Virus record (IMG/VR): IMGVR_UViG_3300010411_000009
Location: 1 to 32,688 of that record
Origin: a virus
Reading direction: 5' to 3' (one strand)
Length of the DNA: 32,688 bases
Each line of letters begins with the position of its first letter. The stretch's first letter is position 1. The notes beneath the pieces were generated by a model. The model did no database searches and was not told where the DNA came from. It was given only the letters and a program-made list of their open reading frames with translations. This document shows, piece after piece, positions 4,130 through 32,688 of the stretch. Made by a program: the position numbers and the translations under genes.

Positions 4130-4316
4130 CTTAAAAATCATTTTTGAAGATGGTTACTTTGAAACACGAAAAGGGCATTATTTATATGGAATTAAGCATA
4201 ATGGAAAAAGACCTGTATTAATTGAATTCTATGGTACTTACCCTTCTGAAGATGCTATACAGCAGGCTACATATTGTGTTCACGTAAATAAAGGAAAAGT
4301 CGTTGTCAAAGAATAG
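4115..4316. repeat. 15-bp direct repeats flanking a 66-aa ORF
   Basis: GTTGTCAAAGAATAG occurs exactly at 4115-4129 and at 4302-4316, 187 bases apart. Each copy encodes the last residues of one gene (VVKE, stop) and, in another frame, the first residues of the next gene (TTG start, MSKNS). The gene between them therefore begins like the large terminase and ends like the small-terminase candidate, as expected if a cassette was inserted or duplicated through this junction. Confidence 0.85.
4116..4316 (+). CDS. Hypothetical protein, 66 aa, TTG start
   Basis: A small protein wedged between the small and large terminase genes. I chose the TTG at 4116 because it sits in the same sequence (TTGTCAAAGAATAG) as the TTG start of the large terminase and follows a purine-rich GAGGGGG SD. 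A TTG 18 bases upstream is possible. The product reads MSKNSLKIIFEDGYFETRKG, then GIKHNGKRPVLIEFYGTYPS and a C-terminal helix plus VVVKE. It looks like a small alpha/beta protein, with no motif I recognise. It overlaps both neighbours by 14 bases, so translation of all three is likely coupled. It may have arrived as an insertion at the gene junction. Confidence 0.55.
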   Translation: MSKNSLKIIFEDGYFETRKGHYLYGIKHNGKRPVLIEFYGTYPSEDAIQQATYCVHVNKGKVVVKE

Positions 4317-7692: not shown

Positions 7693-8081
7693 TTCCTGGT
7701 AAATACCCAATTACGATTTGGAGAGGTGGTACTTGGTCTATTGGTATTACTCAAGATGTATTAGATTTTGCTGAGTATGATGAAATACGTATGCAGGTAC
7801 GTCCTCCTTTTAGAAAAAATTCATCTTCTGCTTGTAGCAGTTCAACTGCTCTGTTGAGCCTTACGCTTGAAAATGGGCGTATTACAGTAGAAGAGGATAC
7901 TAACACATTACGTCTTACTATATCGTCCACAGATACGGCAGCTATCAAGTTTAATGAAGGTGTATATGATCTTGAATTAGTAACTCATGTTGATTTAGAG
8001 GCTGACCCTCAAATTACTGAAGAGGTTGTTGATAAGTTATTGTATGGTACTGTTGAGGTTGAAGGAGAACAGACAATATGA
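7689..8081 (+). CDS. Tail-fibre-upstream beta protein, 130 aa
   Basis: A small beta-rich protein placed between the 30-kDa protein and the tail fibre and overlapping both neighbours by ATGA junctions, so the three are translationally linked. PGKYPITIWRGGTWSIGITQ at the N-terminus and FNEGVYDLELVTHVD, then LLYGTVEVEGEQTI at the C-terminus follow a pattern common to roughly 110-130-residue phage proteins encoded just before tail fibres ('PGxYxxxIxxGxTW ... GxYDLExxxxxGxVxxLLxGxVxV'). These are thought to be tail or fibre attachment components, but I know of no experimental role for this branch. The Ser- and Cys-rich stretch KNSSSACSSSTALLS near residues 42-56 interrupts the usual hydrophobic strand pattern and may be a surface loop. 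Confidence 0.6.
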   Translation: MIPGKYPITIWRGGTWSIGITQDVLDFAEYDEIRMQVRPPFRKNSSSACSSSTALLSLTLENGRITVEEDTNTLRLTISSTDTAAIKFNEGVYDLELVTHVDLEADPQITEEVVDKLLYGTVEVEGEQTI

Positions 8082-11000
8082 CTGATACTGTAAGTGTCAC
8101 AATACAGGAAGATCCTATGCCTGTATTAATTGATACTGGTACAGCAGCAATTACAATAACAGATGCAACTACTAATAAGATTACTGTTATAGAAGCAAAT
8201 CCTGTTTCTGTATCTGTTGCTAATGGTAATCCTTCAGTTACAATAAATAATGGAGGATATTCAGGTACTGTATCAGTTTTACTTTCTGATCTTGTAGGAA
8301 AATTAACAAGAACTCAGATGGAACCAGGATTACTTTCTGACTTAGAAAAGCTTGAATCTCTTTGGATAAGACTTGGTAATAACCTTATTTTATCATATCC
8401 TGATGGGATAGCTATTCAAGAAGCAGGTACTGAGTATACAGATTCAAGTATTATTAGTGCTGTAGCTGATATTGATGTGAGTATTGATGGTAAACTTAAT
8501 GTTGCTTATTCTACTATTACACAAACAGCAGATGCTATTGATAGCAGAGTTACATCTATTGAGGGTACTACTAATGATCGTATAGAAGTAGCTGAATCCA
8601 GAATACTTCAGACAGCGAGCGATATTACATCTACTGTTACAAGATTAGATGCTTCAGATGATTCTATAGAACTTTTACAATCTTCTATTTCTCAAGCAGA
8701 AGATTCTATTGAACTTGAGGTAACTGCACGGGAAGAATTAGAAGATGAAGTTGTAACAGTTCAATCCAGTATTTCATTGCTATCAGATTCTATTTCTTTG
8801 TACACAGAAACTCTTGATACACTTAGTGATCGTGTAACTTCTTCTGAAATTATTCTTGGAAATGATGGAATTAATTTATCAGTTGTAGAACAAGGTTTAG
8901 CTAATTATACTTATTCTCTTAGTACAATACAGACACAGTTAAATAACCAATGGGGTATTACTGTTGAAGAAGATATTAATGGTAATAGTTATACTTCTGG
9001 TTTTGGTATCATTCTTCATCCTGCTTGGCTTATTGGAGAAGAATATACTATAGGACAAACTGTTACTTATTCAGATGTTGTATATGAATGCTTAATAGCA
9101 AATACTTCTTCTTCATCTAATAATCCTTTTGATGATTCTGTTACTTGGGTTGAATTACCTAATGGTGTTAAATCTGAATTTTCTGTTAATGCTGAATCAT
9201 TTCAAATATGGACTAATGATGGGCTTGTACCCATGTTTACTGTTACTAATGGGCAAGCAGCAATTAATGGTGATCTTGTAGTACAATCTATTGAATCAGA
9301 TGATTATGATGATGTGTCTTTACCTGGATTTAAATTAGATCCAGCTACTGGTTCTGCTGATTTCAGAGGTATGACACTTACGCTTGGTTCAGGTAGTTCT
9401 GGTTATTCTAATTTTAGTGATAAACCCCAATCTCTTGCTGATATCAGTACATCTGAATATGCTCTACTTAGTACAGCAGGTAGTGATTCTGTCAGGGTAT
9501 CTTGGTTCTATAGTCATGTACCTACGATGCTTAACGCGCCTGTAACTGATTGGGATGTAGCTGATTACAATGACCATGTAGGAGATTTATATTTTGATAC
9601 TTTTAATAATAATCCATATTTCTTTAACTTATCTTTAGGTGAGTACAAGTGGGATAGTTTAGTAGATCCTGATATTGCTTTATCCCTTCAGAATGCAGCA
9701 GATGCACAAGAGGCTGCTGATGGTAAGGTCACATTCTATTATGATACTCCTGTTCCTCCCTATCAACTGGGTGATTTCTGGGACCATACAGACGGTTTAA
9801 AAGTTTGCACTACTGCCAGGCCTACTGGAAGCTTAATCGCTACAGATTGGACTGTAAAGGCCACTAATGGAGCTACTTGGGATACGAACGTAATTGGCAA
9901 GCCAGAAAATTTAGGAGATCTTGACTCAATAGCAGCAAGTGAATTAGCTACAGCATTAAGTAATTCTATTCAAGCAATTTCTGATGCTTCTTCAGCACAG
10001 GATACAGCAGATGGTAAGATAACCTCATTCTATCAAGATACAGAACCAACTACTGGTATGAGTACCGGTGATTTTTGGGTAGATACTAATGATAATAATA
10101 AGCTATATAGGTATACCGGTAGTGCTTGGGTTTCTGCACAAGATAATCTTATAGGAACTGCCATAACAGCAGCACAGACAGCACAGACAACTGCAGATGG
10201 TAAAGCAGAAGTTTACTATTCTGCTACTGAACCAACAGGTATGAGTGAAGGTGATCTTTGGTATGACACAGATGATGAGCAGAAAAGATTGTATAGGTAT
10301 AATGGTTCAGAGTGGTCTACTGTAGCTTCGTATGGAGCTAATTGGGGTTCAAATATTCTTAACGAACCTTTGTCATTAGCTGATATAAGTGCAGAAGAGG
10401 GAGGTAAGCTTGCAGGAATTGCTAATGGTGCTGATGTTACCAGGGATAATGTTGCAAAGGGTGTAGAAGGACAGGAAGTGTACACCATTAGTGCTTATGC
10501 ATACCAGGATACAGCACATCATACATTAGGCGGTTTATGGAATGAGGATGGTGTTAATTTAACAAGTGCTTTTGGTAATAATCCTCGGTCTTATGTGTTA
10601 TCTGTATTTAATAGAGCCTCTTCTTTCTGGATTAGTCATACTAAATACGATATATATGGCGATTCCAATAATGCTCTTTTACTTGCCAATGCTTTAAATG
10701 CACTTGATAATAATAGTATAATTGTACTGGTTGGTTCTCATGCTCCTGGTCAGAATAGACTTACAAATGGTTTACCTGATGCTATATATCGGTGTGGCGG
10801 TAGTAGAACTATTTTTGAAAATCAAGATTGGACCATTCTTCATCCATCTTATATCTTAGTTGGTTATCCAGGTATGGGTGAAGGTTGTGGACATGAGGCA
10901 TTTGCTCCTGGTTCTGTTGGTTGGGTTGCAGGGTATGGTTCTGTTGGTTGGGTTGAAACGCAAATTGTAATCAAAAATGGTTCAATTGTCGGATTAACAC

Positions 11001-11752
11001 GAACTCCCACATTTGGAGCACTTGCAGGCCTTGATAAAATCACAGATACTGTGATTGATTCTAATGCTATATCAGCATCTAAGATTAATGCTACTAATTT
11101 AGCTGCATTATCTACTGCTACTGGTGCATTATATGTCGATAATAGTATCACGCTTAATGCAAACACTGGCCGGATAAAAACGGTTGGTAAGGATAGCTAC
11201 GCCGATGAAACGTCAGGGTTTTATCTTGGCATGAACGATTCCGGCGCGGCCCTCAATATAGGCGACTCATCTAACTATTTGAAATATTATAATGGAGATA
11301 TGACTGTTGGTGGTGACATAATAGCCACAGGGAATATTAAAGCTAAAAACGTAACAACAGAAACAATAAATGACAATGCTGTTACCATACCAATGGCATC
11401 ATTTAGTAGTGCTTATACTAAGTTCACAACTCATTATAACTATTATGGTTCTTTAAGTTCTTTAACTATTCCATCAAAAGGGAATTTTATACAGATACTT
11501 ACGTCAGTAACTGTTTTTAATGAGGATAATCGTTCGTCAAGTCTTTATTTAACTTTATTTAGAAATAATGATGAATTGCTTACTGAAGATCTTCACTTAG
11601 TAAGTAAGACTTTTCAGAAATTCCAATTAAACTATGTCGATAATAATCATACTGGGAATTTAACTTATTCTTTAAAGTTACAAATTAGAATATCAAGCAA
11701 AAGAGTATACACAGAAAATAGGTTCTTATCTTTATTAGAGGTACAAAAATGA
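8078..11752 (+). CDS. Modular tail fibre / appendage protein with an ILEI-like domain
   Basis: 1224 residues, receptor-binding tail protein. In order: a beta N-terminus probably docking to the tail (1-110); a helical heptad-like region with repeats such as STITQTADAIDSRVTSIEG (about 125-290); a chitin-binding-like fold AWLIGEEYTIGQTVTYSDVVY (about 314-361); three ADGK...YY..PT..GDFW modules (starting near 547, 644 and 706) alternating with NxxDKPxSLADI-type linkers; an ILEI/FAM3-like domain (about 797-960, KYDIYGDSNNALLLANALNA); and a lambda J-type C-terminal region (GRIKTVGKDSYADETSGFYL) leading to a terminal beta domain. The class resembles appendage proteins at the gp65/gp66 place in N4. 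The DNA for residues about 1029-1066 is much GC-richer than the rest, suggesting recent exchange. The gene ends in an ATGA overlap with the next. Confidence 0.85.
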   Translation: MTDTVSVTIQEDPMPVLIDTGTAAITITDATTNKITVIEANPVSVSVANGNPSVTINNGGYSGTVSVLLSDLVGKLTRTQMEPGLLSDLEKLESLWIRLGNNLILSYPDGIAIQEAGTEYTDSSIISAVADIDVSIDGKLNVAYSTITQTADAIDSRVTSIEGTTNDRIEVAESRILQTASDITSTVTRLDASDDSIELLQSSISQAEDSIELEVTAREELEDEVVTVQSSISLLSDSISLYTETLDTLSDRVTSSEIILGNDGINLSVVEQGLANYTYSLSTIQTQLNNQWGITVEEDINGNSYTSGFGIILHPAWLIGEEYTIGQTVTYSDVVYECLIANTSSSSNNPFDDSVTWVELPNGVKSEFSVNAESFQIWTNDGLVPMFTVTNGQAAINGDLVVQSIESDDYDDVSLPGFKLDPATGSADFRGMTLTLGSGSSGYSNFSDKPQSLADISTSEYALLSTAGSDSVRVSWFYSHVPTMLNAPVTDWDVADYNDHVGDLYFDTFNNNPYFFNLSLGEYKWDSLVDPDIALSLQNAADAQEAADGKVTFYYDTPVPPYQLGDFWDHTDGLKVCTTARPTGSLIATDWTVKATNGATWDTNVIGKPENLGDLDSIAASELATALSNSIQAISDASSAQDTADGKITSFYQDTEPTTGMSTGDFWVDTNDNNKLYRYTGSAWVSAQDNLIGTAITAAQTAQTTADGKAEVYYSATEPTGMSEGDLWYDTDDEQKRLYRYNGSEWSTVASYGANWGSNILNEPLSLADISAEEGGKLAGIANGADVTRDNVAKGVEGQEVYTISAYAYQDTAHHTLGGLWNEDGVNLTSAFGNNPRSYVLSVFNRASSFWISHTKYDIYGDSNNALLLANALNALDNNSIIVLVGSHAPGQNRLTNGLPDAIYRCGGSRTIFENQDWTILHPSYILVGYPGMGEGCGHEAFAPGSVGWVAGYGSVGWVETQIVIKNGSIVGLTRTPTFGALAGLDKITDTVIDSNAISASKINATNLAALSTATGALYVDNSITLNANTGRIKTVGKDSYADETSGFYLGMNDSGAALNIGDSSNYLKYYNGDMTVGGDIIATGNIKAKNVTTETINDNAVTIPMASFSSAYTKFTTHYNYYGSLSSLTIPSKGNFIQILTSVTVFNEDNRSSSLYLTLFRNNDELLTEDLHLVSKTFQKFQLNYVDNNHTGNLTYSLKLQIRISSKRVYTENRFLSLLEVQK

Positions 11753-13874: not shown

Positions 13875-15998
13875 ATGGCTGAGTTAGAAAACATGTCTTC
13901 AAGCGAATGGGTAAATCCTCCTTCAGTTGAAGATTTAAAAAAGAATATAGATGATGCTGATATTGATCAAGCTGAACACCTTACTAAGGTTAAACATTGG
14001 CTTGATAATCTCAATGTAGAAGGGTCAGCTAAACCAGTTAAAGTTGCGGGACGTTCTTCAGTAGCCCCGAAGCTTATTAGAAAACAAGCTGAATGGCGCT
14101 ATTCATCTTTGTCTGAACCTTTCCTTAGTTCACCTGATATTTTTAACGTTTTACCGAGAACTGCTGGTGACAGAAAAAGAGCACAGCAAAATGCACTTCT
14201 TTTAAACTACCAATTTAATAATGTTATTGACCGTGTTAATTTTATTGACTCATATGTAAGAGATGATGTTGATATTGGAACAGTCATTGTTAAAGTTGGT
14301 TGGTATTCAGAAACAGAAATTGTAGAAGAAGAAGTACCCATATTTGAATTTCAGCCTGTAGTTAATGAAGAACTGCTTAAGCAGTATTTAGCTTGGCTTG
14401 AAATGAGAGAAACTAATAAAGACCTATATGCAGAAGTATACAATCCAGGTATAGATCAAGCATTAGATATCTTAGTAGAAACAAAAGAACTTGTTATTCC
14501 CAGGCAAGTAGGTTCTGAACTGGTTGAAACTTTAAAAGAAATTAGAAATGAACCTACGGTAGAAACCTGCTTGCCAGAGAATATCATTATTGATCCTTCT
14601 TGTAATGGTGATTTAAATAAAGCTGAGTTTATTGGTGAAAGATTTAAATCAAGTTTATCTGCTCTTAGAAAAGATGGTAGATACTATAATTTAGATAATC
14701 TTGATACCTCATCAGCAGATCCATTAACTGATCCAGACCATGAAGAAGGTCCAGACAACAATACTTTCAATTTTGATGATGAAGCAAGAAAACAATTTAT
14801 AGTACATTCATATTGGGGTAATTGGGATATTAGTGGTAAAGGTGTTGCAGAACCTATCTGTGCTTTTTGGGTTGGTAATACTATGATACGTCTTGAAAGA
14901 AACCCTTTTCCATTTAAGAGACCTCCTTTTGTTAAGGTAGTTTATATGCCTGTAAGAAAATCTTCTTGGGGTCAACCAGATGGTGAACTACTTGAAGATG
15001 GGCAAAAGGTTATAGGAGCAGTTACAAGAGGTATTATTGATCTTCTTGCTAAGTCAGCTAATAGTCAAACTGCTTTTAAAGAAGGTGCTATTGATCCTAC
15101 TAATATGCGTAAATTTAAAAGAGGTGAAGACTATAAAGTTACTGGTTCTGAATCACCTCAGAATTCAATTTATATGCATAAGTATCCTGAAATACCCAAC
15201 TCAGCTTATAGTCTTATTGCTTTAGAACAGAATGAAGCAGAATCTCTTACAGGAGTAAAAGCTTACTCTTCAGGTATTTCAGGCGAAGCTCTTGGATCAA
15301 GTGTACGTAATGGCAGATCAGCATTAGATGCTGCAAGTAAAAGAGAACTTGGTATCTTACGTAGATTGGCTCATGGAGTAGTTCAAATAGGTCGTATGAT
15401 TATTGCTATGAATGCTGAATTCCTTTCAGAGGAAGAAGTAATTCGAGTAACTAATAAACAATTTATTCCTATTAGAAGAGATGACTTACAAGGTTCTTTT
15501 GATTTAGAACTCACTATTTCTACAGCAGAAGAAGATGATAAGAAAGCAGAAGAACTTGCTTTTATGTTACAAGCTTCTGGTAGTACAATGGATGCTGGCT
15601 TAAAGCAAATGATTTTATCTGATATTGCTCGATTAAGAAAGATGCCAGCTATTGCAGATAAGATTGAGGCATATAAACCTGAACCTGATCCAATACAGCA
15701 GATGCAAATGCAATTACAGCTTGAGTTATTAAGAGCACAGGTTGCTAAAGAACAAGCATTGGCTACTAAACATGCTTCTGAGGCAGAGCTTAATGGTGTA
15801 CAGGGTGTACAAGCAGCTACACAGGCAAGATTTAATGAAGCTAAAGCAAATACAGAACAAGCTAAAGCAAGAAGTCTTGGTAGTGATGCAGATATTAAAG
15901 ATCTTAATTTTGTTGAACAGAGTGAAGGTGTAAATCAAGCAAGAGCAGTTGAACAGATTAAAGCTAAACAAAATAATAAACCAACTCAGGAGAAGTAA
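13875..15998 (+). CDS. Portal protein, N4 gp59-like
   Basis: 707 residues, the size of podovirus portals of the N4 class (N4 gp59 is about 760). It forms the dodecameric ring through which DNA is packaged and ejected. Visible marks: an early RKQAEWRYSSLSEPFLSSPD segment, ending in PDIFNVLPRT, then a central PFPFKRPPFVKVVYMPV stretch, the GVKAYSSGISGEALGSSVRN turn, and a long C-terminal helical barrel rich in Gln, Ala and Lys (QQMQMQLQLELLRAQVAKEQ and onwards to the end). Its place between lysis genes and scaffold and capsid genes, and the second promoter just upstream, fit an N4-type head module. The C-terminal crown is low complexity but heptad-like. The next gene's SD lies inside its last codons. 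Confidence 0.88.
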   Translation: MAELENMSSSEWVNPPSVEDLKKNIDDADIDQAEHLTKVKHWLDNLNVEGSAKPVKVAGRSSVAPKLIRKQAEWRYSSLSEPFLSSPDIFNVLPRTAGDRKRAQQNALLLNYQFNNVIDRVNFIDSYVRDDVDIGTVIVKVGWYSETEIVEEEVPIFEFQPVVNEELLKQYLAWLEMRETNKDLYAEVYNPGIDQALDILVETKELVIPRQVGSELVETLKEIRNEPTVETCLPENIIIDPSCNGDLNKAEFIGERFKSSLSALRKDGRYYNLDNLDTSSADPLTDPDHEEGPDNNTFNFDDEARKQFIVHSYWGNWDISGKGVAEPICAFWVGNTMIRLERNPFPFKRPPFVKVVYMPVRKSSWGQPDGELLEDGQKVIGAVTRGIIDLLAKSANSQTAFKEGAIDPTNMRKFKRGEDYKVTGSESPQNSIYMHKYPEIPNSAYSLIALEQNEAESLTGVKAYSSGISGEALGSSVRNGRSALDAASKRELGILRRLAHGVVQIGRMIIAMNAEFLSEEEVIRVTNKQFIPIRRDDLQGSFDLELTISTAEEDDKKAEELAFMLQASGSTMDAGLKQMILSDIARLRKMPAIADKIEAYKPEPDPIQQMQMQLQLELLRAQVAKEQALATKHASEAELNGVQGVQAATQARFNEAKANTEQAKARSLGSDADIKDLNFVEQSEGVNQARAVEQIKAKQNNKPTQEK

Positions 15999-23182: not shown

Positions 23183-23638
23183 ATGACTGATAGTAATTAT
23201 AGTTCTTTTGCTAATAATATGAATTTTTCTAATTCAAAAATTCTTTCAGATATTTCTAAAAAATTTAACAATGGTGGGTATTCAAACAGTAGTTTAAGTA
23301 ACACAGGAATTAATGCGAACCAATTTGGTTTTAATTTAGGTGATACTTCTACAAGTAATTCTTTTTTAAAGGGTGTGTTTGGTGGTAAGAATGCTGATGG
23401 TAGTATGTCAAATAACTGGAGAGGTACTGCTTTAAATGTACTTCAATCAGGTCTTGGTTTTTATCTTGGTAGCCAGCAACTTGATCAAGCAGAGGATGCT
23501 TTAGCTGAAAACAAGAGACAATTTAATACTAATTATAATGCTCAAAAAACATTGATTAATGATCAGTTGAAATGGCAGTATCAAGCCAGAAAAGATAGAA
23601 ATGCAGCTAATGCTGGTGAATTGGCTCAAATCTCATAG
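23183..23638 (+). CDS. Internal virion protein, 151 aa (T7 gp14-like layout)
   Basis: The first 60 residues are Asn/Ser-rich and probably disordered. Then a Gly-rich segment with FLKGVFGGKNADGSMSNNWR leads into a helix GTALNVLQSGLGFYLGSQQL. The rest is a polar coiled helix (DQAEDALAENKRQFNTNYNA, then INDQLKWQYQARKDRNAAN). A short amphipathic helix followed by a Gln/Asn/Lys-rich coil is the layout of small ejected proteins such as T7 gp14, encoded right before the larger internal proteins. No domain is diagnostic. It is tightly linked to its neighbours (15 bases after one, 9 before the next), has an AGGTGTTAA SD, and likely packs with them inside the capsid. Confidence 0.58.
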   Translation: MTDSNYSSFANNMNFSNSKILSDISKKFNNGGYSNSSLSNTGINANQFGFNLGDTSTSNSFLKGVFGGKNADGSMSNNWRGTALNVLQSGLGFYLGSQQLDQAEDALAENKRQFNTNYNAQKTLINDQLKWQYQARKDRNAANAGELAQIS

Positions 23639-23647
23639 GAGTATATA

Positions 23648-25477
23648 ATGGCACAAATTACATGGCGTAATGTAGGTGGTAGTTCTGGTGGTAGTTCTGG
23701 TGCAAGTGCTAATACACAAGCTCAAGCCAGTGCTACAGATACTCTTATGAAGGCTTTTGATCCTCTTAGAAACGAGTTAAATGCTCGGCAAGGTGTTAAC
23801 ACTCAGAATTGGGATAACACCGCTAAACAGAACACACAGGCTATGAGAGCACAGTTACAAGGATATCAGAACTTGGGTGATTTGAATAAAGCAGAAGCTG
23901 AAGGTGCTACTTCAGAACAAGCTTTTACTAATCAGTTTGGTGCTCAGTATGATCCTACTGCAAGAAAGGCTGCTATAGATGAACGTAGAATGTATTTACA
24001 GAATGCTGCAAGAAATGAAGCTATTCCTGCTGCTTTAGCTATTGCTGATGAGAATCAGGATATTGGTGCTGGTCTTGGTGAGTTAGAAAATAAGTATAGA
24101 AGTATGGGTATGGCTGAGCCACAAATACAAAAAGAATTGAATACTTTTAGGGCAAATAATTCTGCTCGTGTAGAGGGCTATGAGAAGGCAAATAAGAAGG
24201 ATGCAGATACTTTTCTTACTACAGTAGGTACTCCTAAAAACCCTTCTCAAATCGAAGACATAGTAGCTCAAGCAGGTCAAGCAGGATTAAAGAATACTGA
24301 TTATCTTCGTGATAGACTTACTTCTGAACTTAGTGCATCTCATGAACAAGAGAAATACCAAAGAGGTGCTAATGATTATTACAGAAAAGAGAGAGAACGT
24401 AATGCGATAAATTCTGCTATGGAACGTGGTACTGCTATGCTACAGCAAGGTGCTACACCTCAAGAAGCTTTTGCAGCAAATAAAAGTAATCTTACAGGTG
24501 CTCAGTTACCTAAGTTTCTTAATGCTATGGCTGTTAATGATCCTAATCTTAGTGCTATGAGTAACACACAGAAAGAACAGTACCAAAGAATTGCTGCAAA
24601 AGGTGCTCAAGGTTTAACAGCACATCAAGCAAAACTGGATAAAGTAAATTCTGATTTTGTATCACAACGTGAAAAAGTAACAAGAATTACTCCTGCTGTA
24701 CTTGATACAGTAGATAAAGCCAATACTACTCCAGGTGGTATGGTAGGTAAAATCTCTGATTATATGTCTTCTACTGGATGGGAACCATCTGATATGTGGT
24801 CTGACAAGATCACAGGTAAAGGTAGAGTAGAACAAGAATTAAATAACTTTAAAGCACAAATTGTAAATGAAGCTGCAAGTGCTACTCCTGCTGAGGTAGA
24901 CGCTATACTATGGAATGCTTATCAAGATACTAATAAGAAATCTTTTTTTGGTGATACTGGTTTAGATGTAGAACTTATGAGAACTTCTCTTACAAAGAAT
25001 ATAGACGATTTTAAGAAAGGTGAGCTAATAGACCAACAGCGTATTCAATTTAAACAAGCTGCTGATGCTGAAATGCAAGAGTTAACTGAAGGTCAATTAG
25101 ATTATATGTATGGTCTTAAATCTTCTATAGAAACAGGTAATAAGACAGGTAAAAAAGGTAGTATTGTTGACAGACTTAAAGATATAGATAAGAATGCTTT
25201 ACCTATAGATGAGAGTAAAACTCTTGTTGGTCGGTATAAAGCACAAATGAAACAAATAGATAAAGCAGCAAAAGATAAACAAGCTGCTGATACCGCTGCT
25301 GCTAAGTTAAAAATTGAAGCTGCTAAAAAAGAGAAAGCAAGCAAGACAAAAACTTCAAATACAACTAAAGCAAATCTTTTAAAAGAACGTATAGCCCGAG
25401 AAACACAAAGTGGTTACACAGAACCTGATCCCGATCAAAAACCATTTAATTTTACTCTCAAAAAAAGACCTCAATAA
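23648..25477 (+). CDS. Internal virion protein, 609 aa (T7 gp15-like layout)
   Basis: A mostly helical, Gln/Ala/Lys-rich protein. The start MAQITWRNVGGSSGGSSGAS (with 'ITWRNV') is a recurrent beginning of large internal or ejected proteins in podoviruses. The remainder is a run of helical segments (LRNELNARQGVNTQNWDNTA ... EAIPAALAIADENQDIGAGL ... ERNAINSAMERGTAMLQQGA) and a highly charged Lys/Ala C-terminus (AAAKLKIEAAKKEKASKTKT). Its place directly before the vRNAP suggests it forms part of the ejected core, by analogy with T7 gp15 and gp16. No peptidoglycan hydrolase motif is visible. SD is AGGAGTATATA and there are 14 bases to the next start. Confidence 0.62.
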   Translation: MAQITWRNVGGSSGGSSGASANTQAQASATDTLMKAFDPLRNELNARQGVNTQNWDNTAKQNTQAMRAQLQGYQNLGDLNKAEAEGATSEQAFTNQFGAQYDPTARKAAIDERRMYLQNAARNEAIPAALAIADENQDIGAGLGELENKYRSMGMAEPQIQKELNTFRANNSARVEGYEKANKKDADTFLTTVGTPKNPSQIEDIVAQAGQAGLKNTDYLRDRLTSELSASHEQEKYQRGANDYYRKERERNAINSAMERGTAMLQQGATPQEAFAANKSNLTGAQLPKFLNAMAVNDPNLSAMSNTQKEQYQRIAAKGAQGLTAHQAKLDKVNSDFVSQREKVTRITPAVLDTVDKANTTPGGMVGKISDYMSSTGWEPSDMWSDKITGKGRVEQELNNFKAQIVNEAASATPAEVDAILWNAYQDTNKKSFFGDTGLDVELMRTSLTKNIDDFKKGELIDQQRIQFKQAADAEMQELTEGQLDYMYGLKSSIETGNKTGKKGSIVDRLKDIDKNALPIDESKTLVGRYKAQMKQIDKAAKDKQAADTAAAKLKIEAAKKEKASKTKTSNTTKANLLKERIARETQSGYTEPDPDQKPFNFTLKKRPQ

Positions 25478-25491
25478 AATAGGATAAATAT

Positions 25492-28400
25492 ATGCCATTA
25501 GATCTTGATGCTTTAACTGCTACTAAAATGGCTTCTTTAGAAGGAACTTTAAAAGCCAAAAAAGAAAATGTTCTTACTCCTGCTGCACAGTATTTACAGG
25601 AACGTGCAAATAAAGCACAGGCTCTTAATCCTTTACCTTCAATGGATCAAGAGATTACTCCTACTGAGTTACCTGCTATAGAAGAAAATATTGCAAGGTC
25701 TACTTACAGAGGTGGTAGAGAAGCTGTTCAAGGAATGGCTGGTTTAACTTATGGTTTAGGTGCTGGTGCAGCAGCAATAGCTGAGACTGTTTTAGGTGAA
25801 GGCGGTTTATCTACTGATATAAAAAAATCCATGGTTAATAAGTATGTAGCCAATGAAAAAGCAATGGCTGTTTATGCAAAACCTGAAGATTCTCTTACTT
25901 ATTCTTGGAAAAAAGCTACTGAAGAAGGCGATGTTGGTGCTATGCTTTCATGGGCATCTCATGGTATTGGTTATGTAGCTGCTCAAATGGCTACTATGCT
26001 TGCAGGTGCAGGTATTGTTGCTCAAGGTACTAAAATGCTTGGTAAGAAAGCAGTAAGTAAAATTGCAACTACTCTCATTGAAAAAGAAGCAACAAGACTT
26101 GCTGCTGGTAAAGCAGTTACAGAAGCTACTATGAACCAAGCTACTAAGACTGTAGCAGGTAGGCTTGGAACTCATTTAGGTATGGGTATAGAGGGCTTTG
26201 GTATGGAAGGTGGGGAGATCATGGGTGATCTTGCTAAACAGTCCGTAATCGAAGACAGGGGCCTCACAGGAGCAGAGATAGGCAAAGGGTTAACTGCTAC
26301 AGCTATTGCAGGTAGTATTGAGTATCTTGAAAATGTATTAGAACTTGGTGCTTTTAAAGGTAAACTTGCTAATTTACCTGGAACTAAAAGCATAAATGGT
26401 AAGACAGGTAAATTAGCAAGAGCTGCTGTTACAGGTGCAAAGGTATCTGGTACTGAGGCTCTACAAGAAGCAGCGCAGACTGCTGTAGAACAATGGGGTA
26501 AAGGACAAGATCTAAATACAACTGAAATTATTGATGCTGCTGGTTTAGGTGCATTAGGAGGTGGTCCTGCTTCAGTAGGTGGATTAGCTACTAAATCAAT
26601 AAAAGAACAAAAAACTGCTAATTTTAAGCGTGCTGAAAAAGACAGAATTAAACCACAAAATACTGCTGGATTTAAAACCAAAGTTAAGAAAGCTGCTGAA
26701 ACTGCTAAAGGTGTATTAAAGTTTACTGAAGCAGACAGTCCTGATCGTAATGAAACTACTGCAATTAATGTAATGCATGAACGTGTACAGAAAGAAGAAG
26801 TAGCTGCTTCAGAAAAAGTAAAGATTGGTAAAGATGCTCTTAATCTTTTTAAGAGTATGCATAAAGAACATGGAGAACTTCTTGCTGAATTCGCTGCTGG
26901 TACAGAAGAAGACAAAATAAATAATCCTGAAAAGTATGATGCAATAGATGCAAAGGTTACTGAATTAGAAACAAGAATTAAAGATACTGAACCTATTGTT
27001 ATGGCTATTGTTAAAGCCAAACAAGCAGATAAAGAAGTAGAACCAGAAGCATTGCTTGAAACTTTTAGACAGTCTTTTGTAAAAGAAAATGGTAAAACAT
27101 CAGGTAATATTGCTGAATCTATACGTAAGGTTTTTGGTTCTAAAGCATCTAATACGATTATGGATTCTACTGCTGAAGGTTATATTGATATTGAAGAACA
27201 GTTAAAAGCGTATACAGGAGATTTAACAGAAAATGAAAAAGCTGAAGTACAGGCTGGAGCTAAACTACAAAAGTCTTCTGATGCTGTTATTCAGCAAGTA
27301 AATAAGAATGTAGGTAAAGTAAATACAGATATCTTAGAAGGAAGCCTTGAGGGAGATTTTAAAGGTATTTCTCAGCACATTGAAGGTATTACGGATGCTA
27401 TGGCATCAGGTGATACTAAACTGGCTCAGGATCTACAGCAAACACTTTCTAAGTGGGCAGATAGCAGAGTACATAGATTTGAAGTATTTAATGAAATGTA
27501 CGAAAAAGGTGATAAAGCTTCTTTTAAAACTAAAAAAGCTTTTGCTGAACTAAGTGCAATACGTAAAGCACAAATAGGTAAAGATTTATTTGTAAATAAA
27601 GGATCTAAAGGTTTAGTAGATTTTATGGGTCTTGAAGCACAAGCATTGCAAGATGCTGCTGCTTATGGAGAGGAAATTCTTAACACAAAACCTACTAATA
27701 CAAAAACAGAAACACAGGTAAGGGATAGTCGCACAGCTACTTCTCCAGCGTCGGTCGACATCAAAATCACTCCACAAGAGAAAGTAACTCCTGAAAAGAC
27801 CGATCAGGGGGGAGTTGATGCTCAGATCAATCCTGCTTCTGTAAATGCTACAGAGCAGGATGGTTTGGGTTATTCTGATGAATATATTAATCAAATGTCT
27901 CAGTTAACTGATGAATCAAATACAGAGGATTATATTAATGCTGAGGTTACAGCGAATGTAGAATATAGGAATACTTCCAATAAAACAGAAGAAGGAATTA
28001 GTAAGCGTAAATCAATTAAAGAAAAGCTTTTAGAATTACGAGAAAAAAAGAATAATACGTTACCTTCAAATACAGAAAAGAAAGCTCTTAAAGAGTTACA
28101 GAATTATTTTAATAAATCAGGTCATAAACAAAAAGAAGTTGCTACTGTTAAAATTGTAAATAAACCAAAACAAAGTAAAGACTTAAAGGCAATTGCTAAG
28201 GCTTTTGGTGTACAAGTACATTTTTATGAATCTACTTCTGATGCTATTAATAAACAAGAAGGTGTAGCTACATATACAGATGCTCGTAATATTTTCATTA
28301 ATAAAGATACTAAAGATTCTCATCTTGGTATTTTAGGTCATGAAATTACTCACCAGCTTAAACGTAAACATCCTGATCTGTATACAAAGCTTGAAACTCA

Positions 28401-31400
28401 TTTAGAAATTAGTGATGAAAATTTTAATCAATTTAAAGATAGTTTACTTAAAGATGTTAAAGGTACTCCTATAGAGAAGGAGTATGCTAAGAATGCAAAA
28501 GAAGAGCTTCTTGCTATGTTCGTTGGTGAGCATTTCGGTAATAAATCTTTTTGGAATAAAGTAAAAGTATCTGATAAAAAACTATTTGATAAGCTTGTTA
28601 ATATTGCTCATAAAATACTGACTAAAGTAATGAGAGCAGTTACTATTGTATCTCCATATTTTAGTGATTTACGAGCAGCACAGAAAACACTATTTGAAGT
28701 AATGCAAGAAACTGTTCAGAGAGAGCAAGAGATAACCAAAAAAGACACTATTACAACAACGCATACTGACATATCAGTAAGAGGTTTAAAAGCTGTAAAA
28801 GACCCTGAAATGAGTATTACATTAAAAGATTCTATAGCTGATTACAGAAAATCTTTTATTAATACTGTAAATTTTTTAGTACAACCAAAATATAAAAATT
28901 TTATTGATCAAGATCCTATCCAGTATTTACTTCAAGAAGATGGTAAATTGCCAGAACAAGTTACTGAAGCTTTAATGGCTGTTAGTTACAAATGGCTTGC
29001 TACTCAAGCTTCAAGTTATGTATCTAATGATGAATACAGAATGTCCAGTATTCTTGGTTTAGATGAAGATAGTGATATTCAATTAACTCCTGATGCAATG
29101 AAAGCATTAAGACATATAGGAGTACAGGCAAATTATCCTATTGAAGCTCTTGGTAAAGAAGCATTTAAAATACTTGGTATTAAAATAGGTGATAATGCTG
29201 ATTATGATTTAAGGGATCGTATGGAATTATCTCTTGGTTCTATGATGATTGCTACTATGGAACAGCAAAAGCTTATAGAACCAGTGTATATATTTTCAGG
29301 GAGTGCTGGTAATAAGGATAAAGGAATAGCTCCTTTTGGATATGCTGGATTAATCGCAAAACAAAAAGATCCTCTTAATCCTTTTTATGCTAATGTGACT
29401 GATCGTTTTAAAACCAGTGAAAAGTATATAGCAACTAAGAATGCTGATCCTACTATTACATTTTATAGACCAATATCACAACCTCATACTAAATTGAAAA
29501 ATGAAAGAGAAGCATCTCCTATTATTCGTGGTATAGCAAAAGATTGGAATACTGATAGAACAGCTTGGGATAATACTTATAATCCAGATGGTGAGAAAAG
29601 AGATTTTAGTTTTAAACCATTTACTTATAAAGAAGGTCATCAATTTCTTACTAAAAGAGCTGGTTTTCAATGGACTAAAGAGCAGTCTGCTAATTTGATT
29701 AAAAATATCAATACTCCTTGGGTACCTAATGCTCCTGTAATGAATGTATTTCTTGCTTTAGATCAAGATAGTCAAGAAAGAATTTTAGATAGACAAGATA
29801 CAGACACTGAACACATCTCAGAACATGAAAGTAATAAAGGTATTAATCTTGGTATTCAGAAAAGTATTGAAAAAGTAGCAGGATGGTTATCTGCTGCTGA
29901 GTTAGAAGAAAATGGGTATGAATCTGAATTCTATATTCCTGCTGAACCATGGAAACAAGAAAGAATGGGTATGACATCTTCTGTATCACCGCAGGGTGAT
30001 AAGTTGATGCGTTCTTTGTTTAATATGAAAGATTGGAAACGTGATATGGATCTTAATGATCCTGCACAAAAGGATTTGTTTTTACTTGGTATTGGTTTAT
30101 ATCTTGATATCGAATTTACTAAAGAAGGTGGTATAGTTAATACAGTTCAAAAAACTGAAGAACTTTTACAAACAGATATAATGCAAAATGGTATTCAATC
30201 TATTAAAAACTTAATAAATCGTAATACTGATATTATTAAAGTGACTCTTGATGTTGAAAAAGCTACTGAAACAGAAATGAAAAATATAGTAGCAGCGGTT
30301 AAGAAAGGTGGAGTAAAAGCACAATCTCTTAAAGCATTGGTTGAATTTGCAAGATATGATTTAGCTGTAGAAGCAGGATCTAAAACTTTTGAAACTACTA
30401 TGACTATTGAAATTGATGGTACTGCTAATGGTCCTGCTTTTGGCAGATGGCAGTTTATGCAAGATCCTGAAAATCCTTTGTTACATCTTGCTGCATTACA
30501 GACCGGTGGTTTTCGTTTCTATGAAAATGTAGAAGGACAAGCTAAATGGGATTTATCTGAACATCTTGCTGTAGCATTAAATCATGATGCTTATCAGATT
30601 ACTGGTTTTGCTTGGGCTAATACTCAGTTACAAAGAGAGATAGAAGTACAAGAAGAAAAGCTTGATACACATAGCACTGCTGGTAAAAAATATGATGCTC
30701 AGAAAACCATAGATAAAATGCATGCTTTTCAAGAGATTATGGGTGAAGCTATTGATCCAGAGACAGGCAATGTATCTAAAGAAATGCGTAAGCTTGCTAA
30801 ACCTCCTACAATGAAAACCATGTATTCTATGGGTCAGAAGAAGCTTACTCAAGAATTGATTCATAATACTATTAAAACTATTGAAATGAAGGCAAAAAAG
30901 TTCAGTGAAGATGCTGAAGTATTACATGCTCTAAATATGACTGTATTGACTCTTACAGATCATCCTTTATTTCCTATTTCTGGTAATGGAAATAATATTA
31001 AGACATTACCTATCTCTAAAGAAAAAGTACTTAATACAAGGTTATCTGATGCTGCTATAACAGTTCTTTCAAAGCATATTAGTGAAAATCAAGGTAAGAC
31101 TATGTATGAAGCTGTAATAGAAGTATTTCAAGAAATCAAAGAAACCTCAGATACACTAAATCAAGGACTTAGTTTAGCTACTGTTTACTATAATACAATG
31201 CGTAAAGGATATATTGCTAAGGCATTAAAAGAAGGCAATAAAGAAATTCTTTCTGTTGGTGATGTTAAAAAAATAGATAAACAATTAGAAAACATCTTTC
31301 CACAAATACAAGGTGCTGGTGGTAGTATGTTACCCATGGCAAGTTTAGATGATAGAAGAGATTATTCAGCAAAGCATCCTGTAGTCCAAGGATACCGTAA

Positions 31401-32688
31401 AAAAGACAATAAAGGTAGGAAGGTATATACTCCTACTCGTAAGACTGTATATCCCCGTAAAATAGCCAGTATGAGCGATCCAAGGGTAAGTGGAACTGTT
31501 TTGGGTACACAGCATTTAGATGCAGCAGATGCTAATAAGCTTATGGCTTATTTTGCATTCCTTAATAACCATGATGGATTTACTTTAAGTATCTTTGATG
31601 GTGCAGCATTATCTAATAAAGCCAATGAAATATTTTATGATATTAATTCAAAGTATTCATTTGCTGGTGCAGTTAATGATCTGCTTGTTAATTCAAAGAA
31701 AGTATTTACTGCTAAAGGCAAACAGCTTGCTAAAGAGTTTCCTGAATTTAATTTGGAAGATGCTTTACATGCAGAATTAACTAAACAAAGGATTGGTAAA
31801 GAAAGTGAAAAATATACTGATAAGAGAGGTAAGCAAAGATACAGACAAGTAGCTATTTCTAAAGAAAAGACTGAATCTGTTATTAATGTTTTATCTGCTC
31901 AAGTTGAGCATACAAGTAATAAAGCAAAAGAGAATCAACAGATACTTGCTAAATCAGTACTTGGTATTTCTCAGTATGCTTTCCCTGGTACAGAGTTCAT
32001 TACTAAAAATAAAGAAGTTGATGAGATTTATGGTATTAAACCCTCTGAAATTACAAATGAGAGAACTAAAGTATTAGAAGAAAATATTACTTCTATGCAA
32101 AAAATGCGTAGAGATCTTGGATACAAAGATACTCCTGCTACTATAAAAGAAATCGTCAAGAAAATTGTAAAAGAAGAGACTATAGAAAGTACTCCATTTA
32201 AAATAAAGAAAAATCTTAATCCAAATTTTGATTTAACTTCTAAAAAAGAACAAGATTTTAATGTAATAATGGTAGGTGCTCCTGTAAAAACAGTTAAAGC
32301 TACTGCGTATACTTCTGATAAATTTCCTGGTATTGGTTTTGCTTTTCATAAAGATCCCGATAGAGATGCATGGATTTTATCAGAAGTAACTACAGGTGGG
32401 AAAGTATTACATGGGGAATTTACTCAACAGGAACTCATTAATACTCTTGAAACAAATATTGATTACACACGTTTTTTAAAAGCTTTAGAAGCTTTAAAAA
32501 AAGAAAACACTTATGGAAGCAATAGAGATTCAAATTTATCAGAAGATCCTGCTGATTTTGAAATAGAAGAAAAAGTTAATAATGAAAATGTAATTGAACT
32601 CTATGATGCTATTAAAGATAATGGAAATAAAAAAGTAAGTGAAACACATGATCTTCAATTAAAAAGTATTCTTAATAGAGTAGTCAAG
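25492..32688 (+). CDS. Virion RNA polymerase (N4 vRNAP-like) with zincin domain, 3' end off the window
   Basis: 2399 codons without a stop, running off the right edge (N4 vRNAP is about 3500 aa). Residues 70-330 are Gly/Ala-rich with amphipathic or membrane-seeking stretches (AGLTYGLGAGAAAIAETVLG, HGIGYVAAQMATMLAGAGIV), as in ejected proteins. Residues about 900-1010 form a zincin peptidase: NIFINKD, GHEITHQL (H950, E951, H954) and EELLAMF (E1004/E1005). Polymerase motifs: KQERMGMTSSVSPQG with R1491 and PQG 1500-1502; motif A EIDGTANGPAFG (D1642); motif B RKLAKPPTMKTMYSMG (R1766, K1770, Y1778); motif C LSIFDGA (D2036). The D-to-D gap of 394 is close to N4's 392. A further domain follows (about 2250-2330, GIGFAFHKDPDRDAWILSEV). 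The SD before ATG 25492 is weak (AGGATAAAT). The enzyme would transcribe early genes from hairpin promoters, none of which I find here. Confidence 0.9.
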   Translation, partial: MPLDLDALTATKMASLEGTLKAKKENVLTPAAQYLQERANKAQALNPLPSMDQEITPTELPAIEENIARSTYRGGREAVQGMAGLTYGLGAGAAAIAETVLGEGGLSTDIKKSMVNKYVANEKAMAVYAKPEDSLTYSWKKATEEGDVGAMLSWASHGIGYVAAQMATMLAGAGIVAQGTKMLGKKAVSKIATTLIEKEATRLAAGKAVTEATMNQATKTVAGRLGTHLGMGIEGFGMEGGEIMGDLAKQSVIEDRGLTGAEIGKGLTATAIAGSIEYLENVLELGAFKGKLANLPGTKSINGKTGKLARAAVTGAKVSGTEALQEAAQTAVEQWGKGQDLNTTEIIDAAGLGALGGGPASVGGLATKSIKEQKTANFKRAEKDRIKPQNTAGFKTKVKKAAETAKGVLKFTEADSPDRNETTAINVMHERVQKEEVAASEKVKIGKDALNLFKSMHKEHGELLAEFAAGTEEDKINNPEKYDAIDAKVTELETRIKDTEPIVMAIVKAKQADKEVEPEALLETFRQSFVKENGKTSGNIAESIRKVFGSKASNTIMDSTAEGYIDIEEQLKAYTGDLTENEKAEVQAGAKLQKSSDAVIQQVNKNVGKVNTDILEGSLEGDFKGISQHIEGITDAMASGDTKLAQDLQQTLSKWADSRVHRFEVFNEMYEKGDKASFKTKKAFAELSAIRKAQIGKDLFVNKGSKGLVDFMGLEAQALQDAAAYGEEILNTKPTNTKTETQVRDSRTATSPASVDIKITPQEKVTPEKTDQGGVDAQINPASVNATEQDGLGYSDEYINQMSQLTDESNTEDYINAEVTANVEYRNTSNKTEEGISKRKSIKEKLLELREKKNNTLPSNTEKKALKELQNYFNKSGHKQKEVATVKIVNKPKQSKDLKAIAKAFGVQVHFYESTSDAINKQEGVATYTDARNIFINKDTKDSHLGILGHEITHQLKRKHPDLYTKLETHLEISDENFNQFKDSLLKDVKGTPIEKEYAKNAKEELLAMFVGEHFGNKSFWNKVKVSDKKLFDKLVNIAHKILTKVMRAVTIVSPYFSDLRAAQKTLFEVMQETVQREQEITKKDTITTTHTDISVRGLKAVKDPEMSITLKDSIADYRKSFINTVNFLVQPKYKNFIDQDPIQYLLQEDGKLPEQVTEALMAVSYKWLATQASSYVSNDEYRMSSILGLDEDSDIQLTPDAMKALRHIGVQANYPIEALGKEAFKILGIKIGDNADYDLRDRMELSLGSMMIATMEQQKLIEPVYIFSGSAGNKDKGIAPFGYAGLIAKQKDPLNPFYANVTDRFKTSEKYIATKNADPTITFYRPISQPHTKLKNEREASPIIRGIAKDWNTDRTAWDNTYNPDGEKRDFSFKPFTYKEGHQFLTKRAGFQWTKEQSANLIKNINTPWVPNAPVMNVFLALDQDSQERILDRQDTDTEHISEHESNKGINLGIQKSIEKVAGWLSAAELEENGYESEFYIPAEPWKQERMGMTSSVSPQGDKLMRSLFNMKDWKRDMDLNDPAQKDLFLLGIGLYLDIEFTKEGGIVNTVQKTEELLQTDIMQNGIQSIKNLINRNTDIIKVTLDVEKATETEMKNIVAAVKKGGVKAQSLKALVEFARYDLAVEAGSKTFETTMTIEIDGTANGPAFGRWQFMQDPENPLLHLAALQTGGFRFYENVEGQAKWDLSEHLAVALNHDAYQITGFAWANTQLQREIEVQEEKLDTHSTAGKKYDAQKTIDKMHAFQEIMGEAIDPETGNVSKEMRKLAKPPTMKTMYSMGQKKLTQELIHNTIKTIEMKAKKFSEDAEVLHALNMTVLTLTDHPLFPISGNGNNIKTLPISKEKVLNTRLSDAAITVLSKHISENQGKTMYEAVIEVFQEIKETSDTLNQGLSLATVYYNTMRKGYIAKALKEGNKEILSVGDVKKIDKQLENIFPQIQGAGGSMLPMASLDDRRDYSAKHPVVQGYRKKDNKGRKVYTPTRKTVYPRKIASMSDPRVSGTVLGTQHLDAADANKLMAYFAFLNNHDGFTLSIFDGAALSNKANEIFYDINSKYSFAGAVNDLLVNSKKVFTAKGKQLAKEFPEFNLEDALHAELTKQRIGKESEKYTDKRGKQRYRQVAISKEKTESVINVLSAQVEHTSNKAKENQQILAKSVLGISQYAFPGTEFITKNKEVDEIYGIKPSEITNERTKVLEENITSMQKMRRDLGYKDTPATIKEIVKKIVKEETIESTPFKIKKNLNPNFDLTSKKEQDFNVIMVGAPVKTVKATAYTSDKFPGIGFAFHKDPDRDAWILSEVTTGGKVLHGEFTQQELINTLETNIDYTRFLKALEALKKENTYGSNRDSNLSEDPADFEIEEKVNNENVIELYDAIKDNGNKKVSETHDLQLKSILNRVVK

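What the first reader, a model, noticed from the sequence alone, without database searches (positions are those of the whole stretch)
28200..28700. Zincin metallopeptidase fused in one chain with the virion RNA polymerase
Residues 950-954 read HEITH inside GHEITHQL, preceded by a beta strand NIFINKD and followed about 50 residues later by EELLAMF, the geometry of gluzincin-type peptidases (two His and a distal Glu as zinc ligands). The same frame continues without a stop into RNA polymerase motifs from residue 1490. Zincin domains of this style are known in injected 'polyvalent' proteins of phages and conjugative elements. Coupling one to an N4-type vRNAP suggests an injected protein that cleaves host proteins, a defence component or itself before early transcription. 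I know of no description of this in N4 vRNAP.
Basis: partly seen in the sequence, partly recalled or inferred. Interest (0 to 1): 0.85.

Follow-up and report, generated by a model that had tools for sequence, protein, structure and literature searches.

The report
Extra zincin in a phage virion polymerase
A giant RNA polymerase that an N4-like phage probably injects into bacteria carries an additional metal-dependent protease-like domain in the hinge before the polymerase; proteases in such polymerases were already known, but this one sits at an unusual place and comes from a different protease lineage.

Summary
The ORF at 25492-32688 (2,399 aa, cut off by the contig end) is an N4-type virion RNA polymerase (PHROG E 3e-138), and residues 881-1090 form a genuine zincin domain (HEITH at 950-954, Glu at 1004/1005). 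The domain has clear homologues (E 2e-23; 3e-17 with the motif masked) in giant phage polyvalent proteins, and its AlphaFold2 model (pLDDT 83, pTM 0.82) resembles polyvalent-protein zincins. The claim that nothing like this had been described is wrong: Iyer et al. 2017 reported that N4-like vRNAPs are fused to one or more zincin peptidases, N4's own lying just after the polymerase. All 19 schitovirus vRNAPs read here have that C-terminal zincin, and this protein's last 64 residues match its beginning, so a second zincin probably lies off the contig. What is unusual is an additional zincin of another clade, in the hinge between N-terminal domain and polymerase. The nearest relative (45-49% identity) lacks it. 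Rhodovirinae vRNAPs have a different zincin in the same slot, so the tree needs two gains. Most likely role: cutting the vRNAP at its hinge after injection; host-protein cleavage and loss of catalysis (an acidic residue replaced by Met) remain open.

The parts
25492..32688 (+). Virion RNA polymerase ORF, 2,399 aa, open at the contig end
   Evidence: phrog_2206 E 2.9e-138; tblastn to 186 phage records; frame open to the end
25492..27696 (+). N-terminal domain (res 1-735), the part that in N4 is membrane-associated
   Evidence: res 13-411 match L022 E 1.2e-81; res 427-825 match L021 E 1.1e-10. The membrane role is inferred from N4 (PMC12633501)
27697..28131 (+). Polar hinge/linker, res 736-880
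   Evidence: composition of res 741-860; the same slot is a ~100-residue linker in N4, res 907-1006 (PMC12633501)
28132..28761 (+). Additional zincin domain, res 881-1090
   Evidence: homologues E 1.7e-23; AF2 pLDDT 83, pTM 0.82; fold matches
28339..28353 (+). HEITH, res 950-954: two His zinc ligands and catalytic Glu951
   Evidence: invariant in 17/17, but the search pattern imposed G-H-E-x-T-H and K
28501..28506 (+). Glu1004-Glu1005; Glu1005 is the likely third zinc ligand
   Evidence: Glu1005 invariant in 17/17 and not imposed by the search
28516..28518 (+). Met1009, where all 16 relatives have Asp or Glu (likely second-shell residue)
28813..31941 (+). Single-subunit RNA polymerase domain, about res 1108-2150
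   Evidence: catalytic residues R1491, D1642, R1766, K1770, D2028
32497..32688 (+). First 64 residues (2336-2399) of the usual C-terminal zincin region, cut by the contig end
   Evidence: matches L021 res 2162-2224, E 3.4e-8; in L021 the HExxH is at 2285
23183..25477 (+). Two genes in the N4 gp52 and gp51 slots (ejection proteins by position)
   Evidence: 151 aa: phrog_2646 E 1.8e-11; 609 aa: position only; same order in L009 and others

Best explanation
This is the virion RNA polymerase of an uncultured N4-like phage that gained an additional zincin domain, of the kind found in injected polyvalent proteins, in the flexible hinge between its N-terminal domain and its polymerase. Shown: the domain is a zincin by sequence family and predicted fold; it lies in that hinge; its nearest relatives lack it; and the protein's end matches the beginning of the usual second zincin region. 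Inferred: it is packaged and ejected with the DNA, as N4 vRNAP is, refolds and binds zinc in the cytoplasm, and cuts the vRNAP itself at or near the hinge, freeing the polymerase (with its C-terminal part) from the membrane-held N-terminal domain. Confidence that it is an added zincin: about 0.95. Confidence in self-cleavage at the hinge as its role: about 0.4. The number below is for the combined statement.
For: vRNAP identity. Zincin. The closest homologues lie in polyvalent-type giant proteins, L062 with a helicase and L071 with a DNA methyltransferase. Placement: NTD homology up to about res 825 and RNAP homology from about 1099 bracket the domain. It is absent from the vRNAP and the rest of the contig of L021 and L022, and the RNAP tree puts the window with those two at 100/100. 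Self-processing: Rhodovirinae vRNAPs carry a zincin of another clade in the same slot, and the tree forces two changes; repeated use of the one hinge between a membrane-held and a soluble part suits cleavage there. N4 NTD is membrane-inserting and joined to RNAP by a ~100-residue linker (PMC12633501). Zincin auto-processing of polyvalent proteins is proposed by PMC5512222.
Against: No catalytic or processing data. N4 vRNAP is packaged unprocessed despite its own zincin (PMC5512222). A hinge is also simply the place where an extra domain is tolerated. Met1009 replaces an otherwise invariant acidic residue, which may weaken activity. Only one sequence carries this domain at this place.
Confidence: 0.42

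Rival explanations
1. The zincin is an injected effector that cleaves a host protein (for example a defence or transcription component) early in infection, and rides on the vRNAP because that is the injected carrier.
For: Its closest relatives occur in polyvalent proteins with quite different partner domains; PMC5512222 lists host targeting as a possibility; lineage-specific presence is typical of host-directed functions.
Against: No target known; a repeated position at the hinge is not needed for a free effector; nothing in the window points to a target.
Confidence: 0.3
2. The domain has lost catalysis and serves as a folded spacer or binding module in the hinge.
For: Met1009 where 16/16 relatives have Asp/Glu; zincin-fold domains without catalysis are known (own knowledge).
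Against: All three zinc ligands and the catalytic Glu951 are kept.
Confidence: 0.18
3. The zincin cuts the vRNAP during head assembly, before packaging.
For: Phage P1 DdrB, another zincin-bearing protein, is processed before packaging (PMC5512222).
Against: N4 vRNAP is packaged whole although it has a zincin (PMC5512222); cutting at the hinge before packaging would separate the polymerase from the part thought to guide ejection.
Confidence: 0.08
4. HEITH is a chance motif in an unrelated helical linker.
For: HExxH alone is not rare enough (expected 0.05 per such protein); Foldseek against solved structures has no match below E 0.001.
Against: Family-level homology that survives masking of the motif, a confident zincin-like model, zincins filling the top VIA rows and polyvalent proteins at TM 0.78-0.81.
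Confidence: 0.02

Closest known systems
Zincin-like metallopeptidase (C1 domain) of Escherichia phage N4 vRNAP gp50 (PMC5512222, PMC12633501)
   Same: Zincin fused in one chain with the same kind of virion RNA polymerase; HExxH plus distal Glu; profile match to the family of this domain, hhalign probability 94.7%, E 6.4e-8.
   Different: N4's lies about 130 residues after the polymerase; this one lies before it and is most likely additional. No direct sequence match to any other vRNAP.
N-terminal zincin of Rhodovirinae vRNAPs (DSS3phi2, EE36phi1, RPP1 and others)
   Same: Same slot between NTD and polymerase, in addition to the C-terminal zincin; HExxH and distal Glu kept in 8/8; at least 23 records.
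   Different: Different clade: HExxHxxD signature; hhalign probability only 8.6% to this domain's family.
MPTase domains of phage polyvalent proteins (Iyer et al. 2017)
   Same: GHExTHxxK helix, EExx(A)D helix and FW after it; closest homologues in such proteins; BFVD top matches are named 'Large polyvalent protein associated domain'.
   Different: Partner here is a virion RNA polymerase; Met1009 replaces the acidic residue.

Membership tests
N4-like virion RNA polymerase | T7-like single-subunit RNAP catalytic residues in a giant late-gene protein | tested here: met
   Catalytic residues invariant in alignment with 12 vRNAPs; phrog_2206 E 2.9e-138
N4-like virion RNA polymerase | Position after gp54-gp51-like virion genes | tested here: met
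   phrog_2050, phrog_2220, phrog_2646 hits upstream, same order in named phages; the 609-aa gene by position only
N4-like virion RNA polymerase | C-terminal zincin after the polymerase | tested here: inconclusive
   Its first 64 residues match L021 (E 3.4e-8); the HExxH would lie beyond the contig end. The A4 profile alone did not find it in the window
N4-like virion RNA polymerase | Packaged in the virion and ejected | not testable with these tools
   Uncultured virus
Zincin metallopeptidase fold | N-terminal helix, beta sheet, HExxH helix, further helix with Glu | tested here: met
   AF2 model order H15-24, E28-34, E44-46, E53-57, H64-79, H122-135; top VIA rows are zincins, Z 4-6, rmsd 3.5-5.6 A over 91-164 residues; these Z values are middling
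Gluzincin-type active site | HExxH and distal Glu ligand | tested here: met
   H950, E951, H954, E1005 invariant in 17/17; the first three imposed by the search pattern on the relatives
Gluzincin-type active site | Acidic residue four positions after the ligand Glu (as in the relatives) | tested here: not met
   Met1009 against D/E in 16/16 relatives
Gluzincin-type active site | Zinc binding and peptidase activity | not testable with these tools
   Needs protein
Polyvalent-protein MPTase | Sequence kinship with zincins of polyvalent proteins | tested here: met
   phmmer E 1.7e-23 to 1e-11 to several such proteins; masked motif still E 2.7e-17
Polyvalent-protein MPTase | Match to a curated Pfam family | tested here: not met
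   No Pfam family at its cut-off for this domain; weak M48/M78 among relatives

The most novel reading that the evidence does not exclude
A self-cutting hinge has evolved at least twice in virion RNA polymerases: in this lineage and in Rhodovirinae a zincin of a different clade was inserted between the membrane-held N-terminal domain and the polymerase, to release the injected polymerase from the ejection channel once it is inside the cell.
Probability: 0.25. Interest if true: 0.72.

Novelty: new variant of a known kind. Interest (0 to 1): 0.42.

Why it matters
How a giant injected polymerase is handled once it leaves the ejection channel is an open question for N4-like phages. A zincin placed exactly between the membrane part and the polymerase, gained independently in two lineages, gives a concrete test: does the hinge get cut, and by which zincin? 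Rhodovirinae phages that are in culture make the test practical. The general fact of a zincin in vRNAP is not new.

Tried and rejected
Close relatives by exact peptide patterns from P0001 or P0002 in IMG/VR: none. tblastn of the zincin in named phages: none at E 1. A 13-sequence vRNAP alignment was too divergent for a scan. Scans with A7 and with an 'EIDGTANG..AFG' pattern found only the L021 contig again; none in bacterial and archaeal genomes, so no prophage relative by that pattern. phmmer against PDB with the zincin: only a chance match; profile of the family: IrrE at E 0.7, not significant. Foldseek against PDB: no match below E 0.001. AlphaFold2 of the polymerase part (res 1110-2150) with three sequences failed (pLDDT 37), so no fold evidence for it; a profile of those three found no solved structure. 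Considered and rejected: chance HExxH; duplication of the C-terminal zincin (no direct match; hhalign 14% to the related A4 group); one common origin with the Rhodovirinae N-terminal zincin. My MAFFT of whole vRNAPs misplaced the window's tail; the local comparison replaced it.

Full report
What was checked. The window is an IMG/VR linear virus fragment of 32,688 bases. The ORF from 25492 runs off its end: 2,399 residues without a stop. HEITH stands at residues 950-954 (nt 28339-28353) and EELLAMF begins at residue 1004.

The host protein. PHROG 2206, virion RNA polymerase, matches with E 2.9e-138, and tblastn finds 186 phage records, with homology starting near residue 1105-1118. In an alignment with 12 named vRNAPs the catalytic residues are invariant: R1491, D1642 (motif A, DGTANG), R1766 and K1770 (motif B), D2028 (motif C). 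Upstream lie genes in the N4 gp54-gp53-gp52-gp51 order (compare). So this is the ejection-protein operon of an N4-like phage. In the RNAP tree the window groups with two IMG/VR contigs, L021 and L022, at 100/100, apart from the named genera sampled. An AlphaFold2 attempt on the polymerase part failed for lack of relatives.

The zincin. HExxH alone would be expected 0.05 times in such a protein, so family evidence was needed. A degenerate pattern for GHExTHxxK in IMG/VR gave 54 stretches. Among them phmmer with residues 881-1090 finds L062 at E 1.7e-23, L053 at 3.1e-20, L071 at 1.3e-17 and L078 at 3.9e-17. With the nine motif residues masked L062 still scores E 2.7e-17, while 50 shuffles that keep the motif stay at or below 16.7 bits against 75.6. 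These relatives are giant phage proteins: L062 with a helicase module, L071 with a DNA methyltransferase, that is, polyvalent proteins. The AlphaFold2 model (17 sequences) has pLDDT 83 and pTM 0.82, with the helix, strands, HExxH helix and Glu helix of a zincin. Against solved structures Foldseek alone is not significant, but the VIA re-alignment is headed by zincin-fold proteins at Z 4-6. In the viral library the best three matches have TM 0.78-0.81 over the whole model, two of them named large polyvalent protein.

Active site. H950, E951, H954 and E1005 are invariant in 17 sequences; E1005 was not imposed by the search. At position 1009 the window has Met where all 16 relatives have Asp or Glu. 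In thermolysin-type enzymes an Asp at this spacing supports a zinc-binding His (own knowledge). Activity is therefore likely but not certain.

What is already known. Iyer et al. [quoted passage not shown] PMC8472413 and the N4 cryo-EM preprint PMC12633501 agree. I read 19 vRNAPs of named schitoviruses: each has an HExxH after the polymerase.

What differs here. The window's zincin lies before the polymerase. It has no direct match in any other vRNAP. L021, 45-49% identical in the polymerase core, has the C-terminal zincin only. Neither L021's nor L022's contig holds a domain of this family, although L022 has the same N-terminal domain (E 1.2e-81). The window's last 64 residues match L021 residues 2162-2224 (E 3.4e-8), and L021's HExxH is at 2285, so the usual C-terminal zincin very probably follows beyond the contig end. 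Hence the domain is most likely an addition, not a shift.

A second case. Two Rhodovirinae vRNAPs have an extra HExxH before the polymerase. tblastn finds that domain in 23 records, all roseobacter phages, and HExxH plus a later Glu are kept in 8 of 8 read. It belongs to another clade (hhalign 8.6% to the window's family), and the tree forces two changes for 'zincin before polymerase'. The hinge has thus probably received a zincin at least twice.

How it probably works. In N4 the N-terminal domain inserts into membranes and is tied to the polymerase by a ~100-residue linker; the polymerase is thought to stay anchored (PMC12633501). A zincin in that linker is well placed to cut it after ejection. 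That step is inference. Host cleavage, loss of activity and pre-packaging cleavage are the rivals, in that order.

Verdict. Observation confirmed; interpretation partly supported; the claim of no precedent is wrong. New variant of a known kind, moderate interest.

Noticed in passing
window 4303-6957 (+): The terminase large subunit gene carries an apparent intein: LAGLIDADG_3 match at residues 397-444 and terminase homology resuming at about 518, after a ...YTRTHN/T junction.
   Followed up: partly
L004 res 2187 and 2424; L017 res 2286 and 2609: Vibrio phages PG11 and 1.238.A have two HExxH sites after the polymerase, so the number of zincins per vRNAP varies on that side too.
   Followed up: no
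L011, L012, L084-L089: Rhodovirinae vRNAPs share an N-terminal HExxHxxD zincin in at least 23 records; I found no text in the papers read that describes its position.
   Followed up: yes
window 8078-11752 (+): A 1,224-aa tail-tip-like protein contains a carbohydrate-binding module of family 5/12.
   Followed up: no
window 13875-15998 (+): The portal matches Pfam's SU10_portal family (E 2e-139) although the gene block is N4-like.
   Followed up: no
window 32254-32496 (+), vRNAP residues 2255-2335: A stretch between polymerase and C-terminal zincin (GIGFAFHKDPDRDAWILSEVTTGGKVLHGEF) has no counterpart found in L021 and matches no Pfam family; possibly a further inserted domain.
   Followed up: partly
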